Positions 1 through 5,651 of a stretch of DNA of 5,993 nt are shown here, piece by piece. The translations under genes and the position numbers were made by a program. Source of the stretch: an uncultured Candidatus Saccharibacteria bacterium (GTDB lineage Bacteria; Patescibacteriota; Saccharimonadia; Saccharimonadales; Saccharimonadaceae); contig CALIXG010000109.1 of NCBI GenBank assembly GCA_938046495.1, positions 1 to 5,993 of the forward strand, written 5' to 3'. The notes below the pieces were generated by a model that worked only from the letters and a program-made list of their open reading frames with translations, searched no databases and was not told the origin of the DNA. How positions within the stretch are numbered: position 1 is the stretch's first letter; every line of letters starts with the position of its first letter.

Positions 1-661
1 CGAAGAAAAATTCTATCCTAGTAGATTCACTACCATATTCTGGGCGCTCTAAGCATATTAACTTAACGCCATTCTTATCGCATGGAATGACTACTTTGAG
101 ATTTACGCCTATTACTTTTTCCTCATTAGAATATATTACCGGGAATAATCCTAAATCTTTTTTATTACCTTCAGGTTTTTCCGGTCTTTCAGACATAAAC
201 TGCAAATTATACATTTCCCTTTGCCCTTTATTTTTAAGACTAAATTTTAGAAACGGGTTTTTTAATATCTCGTTTTTTAGATAGATCTCTTTTGAGGGTT
301 TTTCTTGAGGTAGACATATATATTCAATTTCCGCATCTCGACTTTTTTCAATTACACCGTCGGAATATTCAACACTGATTAGAGGAAGCGCCGCAATGGT
401 ATTGTCTTGTTTGCGCACCTGATTCTGATGTTCGATACTTTTATTTACCGAGTAAGCCGTTGCGATAAAGCCAGCTATCGCACTTAAGGCCGAGGCAAAA
501 TAGCCTATCAAGACTATAGACCATTGGCCCGGGACTGAATTTAATGGTAGGCCTAATTTACTGGGAATGTTAGCGATATCTAAAATAAACCATACTATCG
601 GGAAGATAGCTAAAAATACAGCTAAGGCAATAAAGCCATTTTTATCTTTTATTTTTTTCAT
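1..661 (-). CDS. Two-helix membrane protein of unknown function, C-terminus cut by window edge
   Basis: Read by hand on the minus strand, an ATG at 661-659 opens a frame of 220 codons with no stop up to base 1, so the gene is real-looking but incomplete. The protein begins MKKIKDKNGFIALAVF. Residues about 9-29 and 47-72 are hydrophobic and should be two transmembrane helices. A short charged stretch follows (KSIEHQNQVRKQDN, 74-87), then IAALPLISVEYS and a soluble, lysine- and glutamate-rich domain. This layout (two N-terminal helices, a charged coiled linker, then a 'lPyl' type strand and a cytoplasmic beta-rich region) is common among bacterial hypothetical membrane proteins in accessory regions; I know no function for it. 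It starts 56 bases after the DUF2726 gene on the same strand. A weak AAGG lies 11 bases before ATG, and a TATAAA at about 684-679 could be a -10, but no good -35 is seen. Plus-strand frames in this stretch are shadows. Confidence 0.8.
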   Translation of the reverse strand, partial: MKKIKDKNGFIALAVFLAIFPIVWFILDIANIPSKLGLPLNSVPGQWSIVLIGYFASALSAIAGFIATAYSVNKSIEHQNQVRKQDNTIAALPLISVEYSDGVIEKSRDAEIEYICLPQEKPSKEIYLKNEILKNPFLKFSLKNKGQREMYNLQFMSERPEKPEGNKKDLGLFPVIYSNEEKVIGVNLKVVIPCDKNGVKLICLERPEYGSESTRIEFFF

Positions 662-717: not shown

Positions 718-1275
718 TTAGCTCTGCACGGAATTTGCATTAATTGCATCCGTAATAACTTTAGCTATTTCCGATTTAGTCATTGATTCGAATCTGCAAA
801 TTCTCGCTAATGGAATTCTGGCTTCCTTAAACATCCGTTCTATTTCCACATCACGCTCTATGCGGTCAGGTTTACTATGGGTAGAATCGTCTAATTCAAT
901 AACACAAATAACTTTATAACTTTCTTTACCAATCAATACAAAATCAACCGACTTGCCATTAATATGGCGAAATGCCGCATTCCAGTTTTGGCATTTTACT
1001 CTATAATCAAGTAAAGCCGAAAGATGTACTTGTGGCACAACAAACCATTTTGAGCTGAATATCTCATTTAAGATTTTAAAACACTCATTTTCGCGCGAGG
1101 TCATAACATAGGATTTTGCGTAATATTTATATTGTGACTTCTTAATTTGACTATTGTTTTCATTCGAGTCCTCTGCTTGCTTGATTTTGCCTATACCTTT
1201 AAAAATATAAGCTATCCCAATAAATATGCATATAACTATTGACCAACTTACTATATAATTAATTCCCTCTCCCAT
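718..1275 (-). CDS. Membrane-anchored DUF2726 protein (PD-(D/E)XK nuclease-like fold)
   Basis: A 185-residue protein with one N-terminal transmembrane helix (about residues 7-26, IVSWSIVICIFIGIAYIF), a polar linker (28-58) and a DUF2726 domain (about 59-165). Family hallmarks are visible: SRENECFKIL (60-69), the VVPQVHLSALLD segment (79-90), NAAFRHINGKSVDFVLI (99-115) and VICVIELDDSTH (122-133), then RDVEIERMFKEARIPLARI. D111 together with E127 and the following acidic residues match the Asp...Glu-x-x pattern of PD-(D/E)XK-like folds, to which DUF2726 is commonly related. Nuclease activity is inference from that fold. The orientation would place the domain in the cytoplasm. The start is supported by AAAAGGA at 1287-1281, five bases before ATG. 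The gene begins 105 bases after the STAS-like gene, so it may be co-transcribed with it, though a relaxed operator-like word lies in the gap (1352-1362). Confidence 0.85.
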   Translation of the reverse strand: MGEGINYIVSWSIVICIFIGIAYIFKGIGKIKQAEDSNENNSQIKKSQYKYYAKSYVMTSRENECFKILNEIFSSKWFVVPQVHLSALLDYRVKCQNWNAAFRHINGKSVDFVLIGKESYKVICVIELDDSTHSKPDRIERDVEIERMFKEARIPLARICRFESMTKSEIAKVITDAINANSVQS

Positions 1276-1380: not shown

Positions 1381-1668
1381 CTACATGCTTTCCTGCATAT
1401 ATTCCTCGACAATTTCAATCACAACTTTTACATTATCTGTACAGTTCTTAAAGTTTATTTTATCAAAAACAATTTCCGGGTATTTTCGAATTGGATCAGC
1501 AAGTAACGCGTGGACAAATGACTGCGTGGCTCCAGTTACCCCCTCAAAATCAATCGTTATATCTTCTTTTTTTTTAAGGCATGGCAAAATAATTTCTAAT
1601 CGAATTTTTCTAGCAATATCTTTGTTTTCGCCATAATCACCGATATATTTAAACATCTTTATTATCAT
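1381..1668 (-). CDS. STAS-like domain protein (DUF4325)
   Basis: A single small domain of 95 residues. The core reads ITIDFEGVTGATQSFVHALL (37-56), followed by KINFKNCTDNVKVVIEIV (70-87). This is the pattern of the STAS-like DUF4325 family: a hydrophobic strand ending DFxGV, then a Thr/Ser-rich loop with SF, then a helix. Its position after an ATP-binding GHKL protein recalls SpoIIAB/SpoIIAA or RsbW/RsbV pairs, where the kinase phosphorylates a serine in the STAS protein. Here S50 or T45/T48 fall near the equivalent loop, but phosphorylation is only inference. The ATG shares four bases (ATGA, 1668-1665) with the stop of the ATPase gene, implying translational coupling. An AGGAG at 1685-1681 lies 12 bases upstream, inside the ATPase gene, and favours this first ATG over the second one four codons later. 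The product might act as an adaptor for the ATPase rather than as an anti-anti-sigma factor; no sigma factor is seen nearby. Confidence 0.82.
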   Translation of the reverse strand: MIIKMFKYIGDYGENKDIARKIRLEIILPCLKKKEDITIDFEGVTGATQSFVHALLADPIRKYPEIVFDKINFKNCTDNVKVVIEIVEEYMQESM

Positions 1669-2639
1669 ACAAACTTAAATCTCCTATATTGGCGTTTTTG
1701 TCGTAGCCGTATGGCATCTCCATAACTAGTGCGTATTTTAGCTAAAAGTTTATCAAATTCATCCAAGTCACTATCTAATGTTAAATCAATTGCGACTAGT
1801 GTACCGTGAAGATATGGAGCATCAGCTCTTTCCGAATGGCGATCATCTTCTGGATTAATTGTTAATCGAGGATTTTCGGAACGTTTGTCTCGCAATAAAA
1901 GTTTATATATGCCTGACCCGCTGTATATCATAAAGTAATTTCTAGTAACTTTGACAATTGACTTAATGAAGAATAGTCCGGCTCCGGCATTGTCTCCGGT
2001 TCCACCCGCATTAGTAGTGGTTCCAGAAACTCCTGGAGTTAATGCCCATTTAATGGCGTTGACATCATTTTCTGCGTGATTTGGCCAAAATTTACTTAGA
2101 CTCTGACGGATCCCAATTCCGTTGTCGCATATTCCTATACGAATAGTATTGGACTTCTTATAGTATTGAGCGGCAACTATTGCCCCAGTTTTACTCATGG
2201 AGTGCTCCAACACGTTTCTAATCAATTCTCCGACAACATATTTTATAGCATCTGCCTTATCTGGTGGAAGATGGAGTAGGGGAATCATTTCAGAGATAAA
2301 ACGTGACTGTTCGTCTGGTGTTTTAATTATGGTTAATGGAATAAAACGACCGGAAGGGTCTTTCTTGTTTATCAAATATGGTGATTTTTGAGAAGTAAAG
2401 TTAAATAACCCCATACTATCAAGGTATGATCCGGAAGATGCGGTTAAATTTGGGATCTGCACGTTATCTTCTCCGACCTGTAGGGCAAGTGACGCTGCTA
2501 ATGTTAAAATTGCAGGATGAACGTTAATCCACTTCGGATGAGTCTCTATCACTAGATTTGTTTTATCTGTTAAGTCAAGTTTATTCAAAAAACCATCGAA
2601 ATAAGCTAGGTAATCGGAATTGGAGAAATACATCTTCAT
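1665..2639 (-). CDS. GHKL/HATPase ATP-binding protein with degenerate N-terminal STAS-like region
   Basis: A 324-residue soluble protein. A Bergerat ATP-binding fold covers about residues 128-290: N box with VVGELIRNVLEHS (135-147; E138, N142 and H145 are the expected Mg/ATP-site positions), G1 box DNGIGI (172-177), a glycine-rich lid GGTGDNAGAGLFFIKSI (212-228) and HGTLVAI (278-284). No dimerisation/phosphotransfer histidine domain and no transmembrane segment are present, so it is not an ordinary sensor kinase. Residues about 27-80 (TNLVIETHPKWINVHPAILT onward, then SYLDSMGLFNF) resemble the STAS-like N-terminal part often found ahead of HATPase domains in this kind of protein. The basic tail (RLRQKRQYRRFKFV) could bind nucleic acid or membrane; that is a guess. 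The gene is the first of a coupled pair with the DUF4325 gene. Transcription should start at or within a base or so of the ATG, because the -10 TACAAT ends six bases before it; the second ATG two codons later is possible but less likely. Confidence 0.87.
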   Translation of the reverse strand: MKMYFSNSDYLAYFDGFLNKLDLTDKTNLVIETHPKWINVHPAILTLAASLALQVGEDNVQIPNLTASSGSYLDSMGLFNFTSQKSPYLINKKDPSGRFIPLTIIKTPDEQSRFISEMIPLLHLPPDKADAIKYVVGELIRNVLEHSMSKTGAIVAAQYYKKSNTIRIGICDNGIGIRQSLSKFWPNHAENDVNAIKWALTPGVSGTTTNAGGTGDNAGAGLFFIKSIVKVTRNYFMIYSGSGIYKLLLRDKRSENPRLTINPEDDRHSERADAPYLHGTLVAIDLTLDSDLDEFDKLLAKIRTSYGDAIRLRQKRQYRRFKFV

Positions 2640-2645
2640 ATAACT

Positions 2646-2674
2646 ATTGTACCTGTATAGCGTGTTTCTGTCAA
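2646..2674 (-). promoter_or_regulatory. Near-consensus sigma70-type promoter of the ATPase/STAS pair
   Basis: On the minus strand a perfect -35 TTGACA (2674-2669) is followed by a 17-base spacer and a -10 TACAAT (2651-2646, five of six). The ATG at 2639 is seven bases downstream of the end of the -10, which is about where transcription should begin, so the mRNA is predicted to be leaderless. No Shine-Dalgarno is present. The spacer contains one complete 11-bp operator arm (2662-2652), so a protein bound there would block RNA polymerase directly. Confidence 0.8.
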
Positions 2675-2691
2675 TAATCGCTATACAGGTA
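2650..2691. repeat. Inverted repeat 1 (13-bp arms), promoter-proximal operator candidate
   Basis: Perfect arms TACCTGTATAGCG (2650-2662) and CGCTATACAGGTA (2679-2691) are separated by 16 bases. The left arm lies between the -10 and -35 of the ATPase promoter, and the spacer carries the -35 itself. This placement, more than the hairpin-forming ability, suggests a protein-binding operator. Each 11-bp arm is itself almost palindromic around TATA, so each arm might bind a dimer. The regulator is not identifiable in the window. Confidence 0.85.
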
Positions 2692-2700
2692 TACTTATTC

Positions 2701-2738
2701 CCTGTATAGCGTGTTTATGAATAAAGACGCTATACAGG
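2701..2738. repeat. Inverted repeat 2 (11-bp arms), upstream operator candidate
   Basis: CCTGTATAGCG (2701-2711) and CGCTATACAGG (2728-2738) form a second dyad with the same arms and the same 16-base spacing as repeat 1, offset by exactly 49 bp. The first 16 bases of both units are identical (CCTGTATAGCGTGTTT), while the spacers have diverged and this one lacks the -35. It looks like a duplication retained for cooperative binding upstream of the promoter. Confidence 0.85.
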
Positions 2739-2987: not shown

Positions 2988-3380
2988 TTAATTCGCGTTA
3001 TACCCAAAAATTCTAGTTAATAAAACTTCTTTCCAGAATGATTCCCTTGCGATAATATGCTCGTCAGATACATCATCGGTAAATGTCTCGAGAATTGAGT
3101 ATTGAAAATTCTCTTGAATATACTTCAAACGTTTTTCTTCGACTAACTCCTTGAGTTTTTTGTTTGGATATTTATTATTTTCCTTTTCATTCTTGTCATA
3201 CCCACTCTTCAAATAAACGCTCCAACGACCTAAAATTCCATCCTCACCATAAGCTGAACCGACATACTGTTTTCCGGTGTTTTTATCTGTAATTAAATAG
3301 ACACCTTTGCGTGATCTTAATGCTCTACACCAGTCTTTGGAGTTATCGATTTTTCTTTTTAAATCATAGTAACTAATCAA
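2988..3380 (-). CDS. GIY-YIG nuclease family protein, short form, probably N-terminally truncated
   Basis: A 130-residue protein that is nearly all one GIY-YIG domain: GVYLITDKNTGKQYVGSAYG (26-45) supplies the GIY and YIG strands, R52 in GRWSVY is the expected catalytic arginine, and E113 in ARESFWKEVL (111-120) the metal-binding glutamate; it ends LTRIFGYNAN. The GVYLITD..TGKQYVGSAYGxDG pattern with the xGxNAN tail fits a subgroup of accessory GIY-YIG proteins. From memory these are usually over 250 residues, with a separate N-terminal region that ends in a segment like VLISYxELKxII; here that segment sits right at the start. The start used is a TTG (3380-3378) without a good Shine-Dalgarno; no in-frame ATG exists nearby, and the frame stays open upstream only to a TAG at about 3419. 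Catalytic residues look intact, so it may still be active, or be a remnant. Confidence 0.75.
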   Translation of the reverse strand: MISYYDLKRKIDNSKDWCRALRSRKGVYLITDKNTGKQYVGSAYGEDGILGRWSVYLKSGYDKNEKENNKYPNKKLKELVEEKRLKYIQENFQYSILETFTDDVSDEHIIARESFWKEVLLTRIFGYNAN

Positions 3381-5575: not shown

Positions 5576-5651
5576 CGGGGCGTGGCACAGTTGGTAGCGC
5601 GCGGCGTTTGGGACGCTGAGGTCGCAAGTTCGAGTCTTGTCGCCCCGACCA
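5576..5651 (+). tRNA. tRNA-Pro (anticodon TGG), CCA encoded
   Basis: A 76-base cloverleaf. Acceptor CGGGGCG (5576-5582) pairs with CGCCCCG (5641-5647); the C1-G72 pair is typical of bacterial tRNA-Pro. Anticodon stem CGGCG/CGCTG (5602-5606/5614-5618, one G-T wobble) encloses loop TTTGGGA with anticodon TGG (5609-5611) and G37. T arm GCAAG/CTTGT encloses TTCGAGT. Discriminator A5648 is followed by a genomic CCA (5649-5651). The D stem GCAC/GCGC has one A-C mismatch (5587 with 5599). With wobble at position 34 this tRNA could read all or most proline codons. Confidence 0.96.

What the first reader, a model, noticed from the sequence alone, without database searches (positions are those of the whole stretch)
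2646..2738. Two tandem dyads with a promoter threaded through the proximal one
Seen: four copies of an 11-bp word in alternating orientation (2652, 2679, 2701, 2728), identical 16-base spacing in both dyads, a 49-bp period, and a TTGACA-17-TACAAT promoter whose spacer is one arm. Perfect conservation of all four arms while the 16-base spacers have drifted implies selection for the arms. Inference: an operator for tight, probably cooperative repression of the ATPase/DUF4325 pair. No regulator gene is visible, so it may be encoded elsewhere or the ATPase/STAS products may regulate themselves.
Basis: partly seen in the sequence, partly recalled or inferred. Interest (0 to 1): 0.72.

Follow-up and report, generated by a model that had tools for sequence, protein, structure and literature searches.

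The report
Self-switch operator crossing bacteria and archaea
A two-gene unit (an ATPase shaped like an anti-sigma kinase, plus a small STAS-type protein) scattered through bacteria and archaea carries paired DNA palindromes on its own promoter that are inherited with the genes and sit around either a bacterial-type or an archaeal-type promoter, and through which the pair would likely switch itself off.

Summary
The dyads are real: four exact CCTGTATAGCG copies, two dyads 49 bp apart, none elsewhere in the window. The proximal one encloses a predicted TTGACA-17-TACAAT promoter whose -10 box ends 6 nt before the ATPase start codon, which predicts a leaderless mRNA.

Eighty related loci show a general rule. 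Upstream of most ATPase homologues in CPR and other bacteria and in DPANN/Thermoplasmatota archaea lies the same construction. Arm type is clade-specific and follows the ATPase tree (5 changes), not host phylum (32). In 13 of 13 archaeal loci the palindrome lies upstream of a TATA-like box. Of 23 assessable loci drawn later, 23 carry it. In 24 genomes all 22 exact class-B palindromes lie at the pair's own promoter. ATPase and DUF4325 are the only widely shared genes, so the regulator is probably the pair itself.

The pair resembles CapK/CapS and VapK/VapS (EMBO J 2026), but its STAS protein has no winged helix, no toxin or immune cargo is shared, and the operators differ. Autorepression is well supported by comparison but untested; which partner touches DNA is unknown. 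New variant of a known kind.

The parts
2652..2689 (.). proximal dyad (arms 2652-2662 and 2679-2689, 16-bp spacer)
   Evidence: exact arms; encloses the -35 hexamer; same layout upstream of homologues
2701..2738 (.). distal dyad (arms 2701-2711 and 2728-2738), 49 bp from the proximal one
   Evidence: second dyads at about 47-49 or 71-72 bp in some other loci
2669..2674 (-). predicted -35 hexamer TTGACA, inside the spacer of the proximal dyad
2646..2651 (-). predicted -10 hexamer TACAAT, abutting the proximal dyad
1665..2639 (-). 324-aa GHKL (HATPase_c_2) protein, SpoIIAB-like in residues 96-290; start codon 6 nt after the -10 box (leaderless mRNA predicted)
1381..1668 (-). 95-aa DUF4325 (STAS-like) protein, overlapping the ATPase gene by 4 nt; invariant T48-Q49-S50-F51
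   Evidence: Pfam; model pLDDT 96; STAS structures on top of the fold list; motif 70 of 70

Best explanation
The two dyads are most likely the operator by which the downstream ATPase/DUF4325 pair represses its own predicted leaderless promoter; dyads or palindromes laid out in the same way, with clade-specific arms, lie upstream of most of the pair's homologues in bacteria and archaea. Shown by sequence: the arms bracket the -35 hexamer, one arm fills the -35/-10 spacer and the -10 box lies next to the start codon, so a protein on the dyad would cover the polymerase site. Shown: arm type is inherited with the ATPase across phyla and domains, no third gene is widely shared, and close matches to the class-B operator occur almost only at this promoter. 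Inferred: the DNA-binding regulator is the pair itself, the ATPase alone or complexed with the STAS protein. Inferred by analogy with CapK/CapS and VapK/VapS: the ATPase is a serine kinase that, on a signal (single-stranded DNA for CapK), phosphorylates the invariant Ser50 (or Thr48) of the STAS protein; the complex then leaves the DNA and the pair is made in a burst. The output is not known; a protein partner of the freed STAS protein is my best guess.
For: Inverted repeats of >=10/11 within 90 nt upstream in 58 of 81 loci (80 relatives plus the window) against 15 of 405 shuffles. Around promoter-like sites scoring >=9.5, arms of >=9/11 in 48 of 63 loci against 12 of 275 other promoter-like sites of the same loci; -10 box 5-8 nt from the start codon in 50 of 63. 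Class-B palindrome in 28 of 32 bacterial and 13 of 13 archaeal loci against 3 of 1717 control windows, spacing 28 bp in 20 of 22. Loci drawn later: 23 of 23 assessable. Arm class needs 5 changes on the ATPase tree, phylum 32. Only ATPase (81 of 81) and DUF4325 (at least 70 of 81) are widely shared. 22 of 22 exact class-B palindromes in 24 genomes are at this promoter; 23 of 27 with one mismatch in 20 genomes; in the L001 genome only the two dyads at this promoter. Fold and sequence links to SpoIIAB/SpoIIAA and VapS and the published CapKS autoregulation (PMC13373217).
Against: No experiment. No known DNA-binding domain: Pfam finds no HTH in the ATPase or DUF4325 proteins scanned, and the 95-aa STAS model is full without a wHTH. 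In CapKS the STAS protein binds DNA by its wHTH, so the analogy does not carry the DNA contact. The published kinase output (immune operon or toxin) has no shared counterpart here. 4 of 32 bacterial class-B loci (L041, L051, L056, L057) lack the palindrome at <=3 mismatches, and 15 of 63 promoter loci lack arms >=9/11. Arm classes were assigned by eye. Degenerate second targets would have been missed, and the window's own genome could not be searched.
Confidence: 0.74

Rival explanations
1. The dyads are an operator for a regulator encoded elsewhere in the host chromosome, and the pair is only its target.
For: Neither protein has a recognised DNA-binding domain. Most operators are read by HTH proteins (general knowledge).
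Against: The pair is sporadic (9 of 379, 18 of 247, 14 of 371 genomes), shared across phyla and both domains with arms that follow the ATPase tree, not the host; no other neighbour family is in more than 5 of 81 loci; close matches to the operator were found almost only at this promoter. A host regulator would have to be present and co-evolve in every recipient.
Confidence: 0.13
2. The dyads are an activator site: the pair or another protein binds them to switch the promoter on.
For: The distal dyad lies upstream of the -35 box, a position activators can use; self-activating controller proteins exist in restriction systems (recalled).
Against: In most bacterial loci the proximal arms enclose the -35 box and reach the -10 box, and in 7 of 13 archaeal loci a half-site lies at the start codon: positions that would block polymerase. 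Hexamers are near consensus and need no activator.
Confidence: 0.06
3. The dyads are ends of a mobile element, a recombination site or a dispersed palindromic repeat, not a regulatory site.
For: The pair is spread by transfer, and the dyads come with it; inverted repeats are common at element ends.
Against: Copies lie at a fixed place relative to the promoter and the start codon, not on both sides of the pair; whole-genome searches find almost no copies elsewhere.
Confidence: 0.04
4. The dyads act in RNA, as leader hairpins or an attenuator.
For: They are inverted repeats and could fold.
Against: The -10 box ends 5-8 nt before the start codon in 50 of 63 loci, so the dyads would not be transcribed from this promoter; Rfam finds only the tRNA; in archaea the palindrome is upstream of the TATA-like box.
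Confidence: 0.03

Closest known systems
CapK+CapS (Chambers et al., EMBO J 2026, PMC13373217)
   Same: Adjacent GHKL kinase-like gene and STAS gene; conserved Ser on the STAS helix; the pair controls its own expression through palindromes at a promoter.
   Different: CapS has a C-terminal wHTH and binds TTAA half-sites 1 or 10 bp apart; CapK has an N-terminal HTH; the sites lie between capK and capS and before a downstream immune operon. Here the STAS protein is 95 aa without wHTH, arms are 11-17 bp and clade-specific, the operator is upstream of the kinase gene, and no second site was found.
VapKSC (same paper)
   Same: Kinase described as STAS plus GHKL without an HTH; short STAS protein; the DUF4325 profile finds VapS (9z7o) at E 0.0077.
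   Different: VapS is an antitoxin of a VapC-type RNase encoded in the same operon; no such gene is shared by the loci here, and no palindromic promoter is described for vapKSC in the sections read.
SpoIIAB/SpoIIAA and RsbW/RsbV anti-sigma kinase and antagonist pairs
   Different: Those act on sigma factors; the archaea that carry this pair have none (general knowledge), and these pairs are not known to bind DNA (recalled).
Autoregulated toxin-antitoxin modules
   Same: Sporadic, transferable two-gene unit with overlapping genes and a palindromic operator over its promoter.
   Different: No toxin domain was recognised in either protein.

Membership tests
CapK+CapS | kinase gene immediately followed by a STAS-protein gene | tested here: met
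   DUF4325 gene directly downstream in at least 70 of 81 loci; my ORF caller drops overlapped genes and some contigs end, so this is a lower bound
CapK+CapS | GHKL kinase domain like SpoIIAB | tested here: met
CapK+CapS | N-terminal HTH and STAS domains in the kinase | tested here: inconclusive
   no Pfam hit in six of the seven N-termini... window and L036 gave only sub-threshold hits, the other five none; model shows an alternating strand/helix N-terminus, but that part was not covered by the fold search
CapK+CapS | C-terminal winged HTH in the STAS protein | tested here: not met
   95 aa, STAS fold fills the chain; no HTH by Pfam in the three DUF4325 proteins scanned
CapK+CapS | conserved Ser/Thr at the STAS phosphosite | tested here: met
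   T48 and S50 invariant in 70 of 70 at the start of helix 49-62; in the profile alignment VapS S48 faces Q49, one position off (offset counted by me)
CapK+CapS | palindrome also before a downstream immune operon | tested here: not met
   no second site in the genomes searched; downstream genes vary
VapKSC | VapC-type (PIN) nuclease gene in the operon | tested here: not met
   no third shared family; no PIN domain among 20 downstream neighbours scanned of 41 on the same strand nor among the window's genes
VapKSC | kinase activated by single-stranded DNA via a conserved aromatic residue | not testable with these tools
   an N-terminal Trp (W37) is present in 79 of 81; its equivalence to CapK W68 or VapK F54 was not tested
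Pfam DUF4325 (PF14213) | score above the curated cut-off | tested here: met
   51.1 bits against 23

The most novel reading that the evidence does not exclude
A GHKL-ATPase/STAS pair without any helix-turn-helix is itself a sequence-specific repressor with a new DNA-binding mode. It carries its operator from genome to genome and between domains, where the same palindrome has been re-spaced by about one helical turn (28 to 38-39 bp) to straddle an archaeal TATA-box promoter instead of a bacterial -35/-10 promoter, while its DNA specificity has shifted from clade to clade.
Probability: 0.5. Interest if true: 0.86.

Novelty: new variant of a known kind. Interest (0 to 1): 0.72.

Why it matters
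If right, a stand-alone kinase/STAS module polices its own promoter in both bacteria and archaea without a known DNA-binding domain. Matched operator and protein variants from dozens of lineages make it directly testable who reads the DNA and how. It would also extend the newly described CapKS/VapKS kind of stress switch to CPR bacteria and DPANN archaea, where few regulatory circuits have been worked out (general knowledge), and give a natural example of one operator fitted to two transcription machineries.

Tried and rejected
Viral contigs: no exact dyad with 16-base spacing and no confirmed ATPase relative. Plasmids: no DNA match for the 201-bp dyad region; one weak partial protein match each in plasmids (23% of the query) and phages (44%). 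Phage families do hold relatives: PHROG 3364 (E 6.5e-29, ATPase residues 15-290) and PHROG 5816, which matches both proteins in one 441-position family; not followed up. Rfam: only the tRNA. PADLOC: the ATPase matches a model named DrmA (E 1.5e-13, residues 71-247 against a 1750-position model); not followed up and not trusted. NCBIfam: no hit above its cut-off. FtsH against plasmids by near-identity: no match; the host lineage of the window was not established.

Literature: DUF4325 (2 papers, passages only); STAS-like/HATPase terms (listing); VapS (listings); defence terms (listing); CapK/CapS/STAS (listing: one paper); arm and palindrome sequences (listing: three papers that look unrelated); STAS with CPR/DPANN terms (listing, 10 of 114 shown). 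None seen describes this operator.

Full report
OBSERVATION. The four 11-bp arms are exact and unique in the window. They form two dyads with 16-bp spacers and a 49-bp period; the 38-bp units are 82% identical, the differences lying in the spacers. A near-consensus promoter on the minus strand, TTGACA-17-TACAAT, has its -35 hexamer in the spacer of the proximal dyad and one arm between its hexamers. TACAAT ends 6 nt before the ATG of the ATPase, which predicts a leaderless message and places both dyads upstream of the transcript.

SURROUNDINGS. The promoter faces a 324-aa HATPase protein and, overlapping by 4 nt, a 95-aa DUF4325 protein. Further downstream lie a DUF2726 protein and a protein without a Pfam match. 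On the other side are a GIY-YIG ORF, FtsH and a proline tRNA.

RELATIVES. A protein search gave 1816 relatives at E <= 0.001 (best 120 listed). A scan of species genomes with a 38-sequence alignment gave 148 confirmed stretches, of which the tool kept the best 80: CPR bacteria, Elusimicrobiota, WOR-1, Saganbacteria, single members of other phyla, and DPANN and Thermoplasmatota archaea. Printing 130 nt upstream of each showed the same construction in most, with arms that differ by clade: CCTGTATAGCG in the window and L001; CCTGTAGAGCG in Falkowbacteria, WOR-1 and others; CCCGTAGAGTGC types in other CPR; ATAATTAC types in three Saccharibacteria (class C); and a full palindrome ACCGGGAWTCCCGGT in the large class B. 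I assigned the classes by eye. Many right arms end in GGTA at the -10 box.

STATISTICS. Inverted repeats of at least 10/11 within 90 nt: 58 of 81 loci (80 plus the window) against 15 of 405 shuffles. With a promoter-like site of score 9.5 or more within 100 nt (63 of 81 loci, a few of them spurious, such as those in archaeal L061 and L065): arms of at least 9/11 in 48 of 63, against 12 of 275 other promoter-like sites in the same loci; the -10 box ends 5-8 nt from the start codon in 50 of 63. Class-B palindrome at up to 3 mismatches: 28 of 32 bacterial loci (not L041, L051, L056, L057) and 13 of 13 archaeal loci, against 3 of 1717 control windows; 20 of 22 spacings between neighbouring palindromes in bacteria are 28 bp. 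Extra arm copies further upstream occur in 17 of 58 loci scanned (3.8% of 997 control windows). In seven of these, the window included, an upstream right arm lies 47-49 bp from the proximal one, and in three 71-72 bp (distances worked out by me); others are single copies that may be chance.

ARCHAEA. All 13 archaeal loci have a TATA-like box, near -30 in most, downstream of the palindrome. In 7 of 13 a right half-site lies within 12 nt of the start codon; measured from the right half of the upstream palindrome it is 38-39 bp away (six by the script; for the seventh, L078, the script took a nearer match and I measured by hand) instead of the bacterial 28. The difference, 10-11 bp, is about one helical turn; that this keeps the same face of the helix is my inference.

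LOCI DRAWN LATER. Whole-genome searches in three phylum samples found the ATPase in 9 of 379 (E <= 1e-30), 18 of 247 and 14 of 371 genomes (E <= 1e-60): sporadic and accessory. Of 42 loci returned, 14 were over 99.5% identical to loci already seen, 4 held only part of the gene (L089, L090, L091, L109) and L121 is the genome of L061. Of the remaining 23, 22 carry the class-B palindrome (21 within 100 nt upstream at up to 3 mismatches, the weakest being L119 with 3; L118 by a scan of the whole locus, since its start was not mapped) and L085 has class-A arms judged by eye. These loci share clades with the first 80, so they are a check, not an independent origin.

INHERITANCE. On a quick tree of 81 ATPases the arm classes need 5 changes (3 is the minimum; shuffled mean 32.5), host phylum 32 (rows without a phylum name not counted). 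Class B is one clade (SH-aLRT 99) holding bacteria and archaea. Neighbour clustering within about 5 kb, limited by contig ends, finds no family other than ATPase (81 of 81) and DUF4325 (at least 70 of 81) in more than 5 loci. Of the 70, the next ORF of at least 80 aa within 400 nt runs the same way in 41, the other way in 23, and none was found in 6.

NO SECOND TARGET FOUND. Exact ACCGGGAWTCCCGGT in 24 genomes (23 class-B, and L026, which is class A): 22 sites in 16 genomes, all at the pair's promoter (matched to locus coordinates by me), controls 0; 8 genomes had no exact site. With one mismatch in 20 class-B genomes: 27 sites in 17 genomes, 23 at the promoter; of the other four, three lie inside ORFs of 242-423 aa and one inside short overlapping ORFs. 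In the L001 genome the dyads at up to 3 mismatches are the two at this promoter; in seven other genomes whose arms differ, the window's version finds the pair's own promoter in 2 and nothing in 5. Degenerate targets would be missed.

MECHANISM. Shown: position, conservation, co-inheritance, near-exclusive placement. Inferred: at rest the pair (ATPase, perhaps with the STAS protein) sits on the dyads and blocks its own promoter; an activating signal makes the ATPase phosphorylate the STAS protein and the complex leaves the DNA, giving a burst of both proteins. Not known: which subunit reads the DNA (leans weakly to the ATPase), the signal, and the output. Five of 20 downstream neighbours scanned (of 41 on the same strand) are DNA-repair or defence-like genes (HsdR in L004, Fpg-type glycosylase in L017, MgsA-type ATPase in L028, GmrSD/HNH in L018, RNase H in L052), which would suit a DNA-damage signal, but there is no control for that count.

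COMPARISON AND NOVELTY. The pair works like CapKS/VapKS but is not filed as a member of either: the wHTH of CapS, the second operator and the VapC gene were tested and not met. No paper seen describes this operator; the library lacks most subscription papers and bioRxiv preprints.

Noticed in passing
window 2988-3380 (-): GIY-YIG ORF (TTG start as called) between the operator and ftsH, related to phage family phrog_26160 (E 1.8e-26) and, below cut-off, to group I intron endonucleases; possibly a homing-type gene or a remnant.
   Followed up: no
window 718-1275 (-) and 2-661 (-): A DUF2726 protein and a protein without a Pfam match follow the pair on the same strand; L001, the closest relative, has other genes there.
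   Followed up: partly
window 1665-2639 (-): PADLOC's DrmA model matches the GHKL region of the ATPase (E 1.5e-13); the model name may mislead.
   Followed up: no
window 1381-2639 (-): Phage families hold relatives: PHROG 3364 (ATPase, E 6.5e-29) and PHROG 5816, which matches both the ATPase and DUF4325 in one 441-position family.
   Followed up: no
   Followed up: no
L004 after the pair: A type I restriction HsdR gene starts 4 nt before the DUF4325 gene ends, so there the pair heads an apparent defence operon.
   Followed up: partly
window 5576-5651 (+): tRNA-Pro(TGG) beside ftsH.
   Followed up: no
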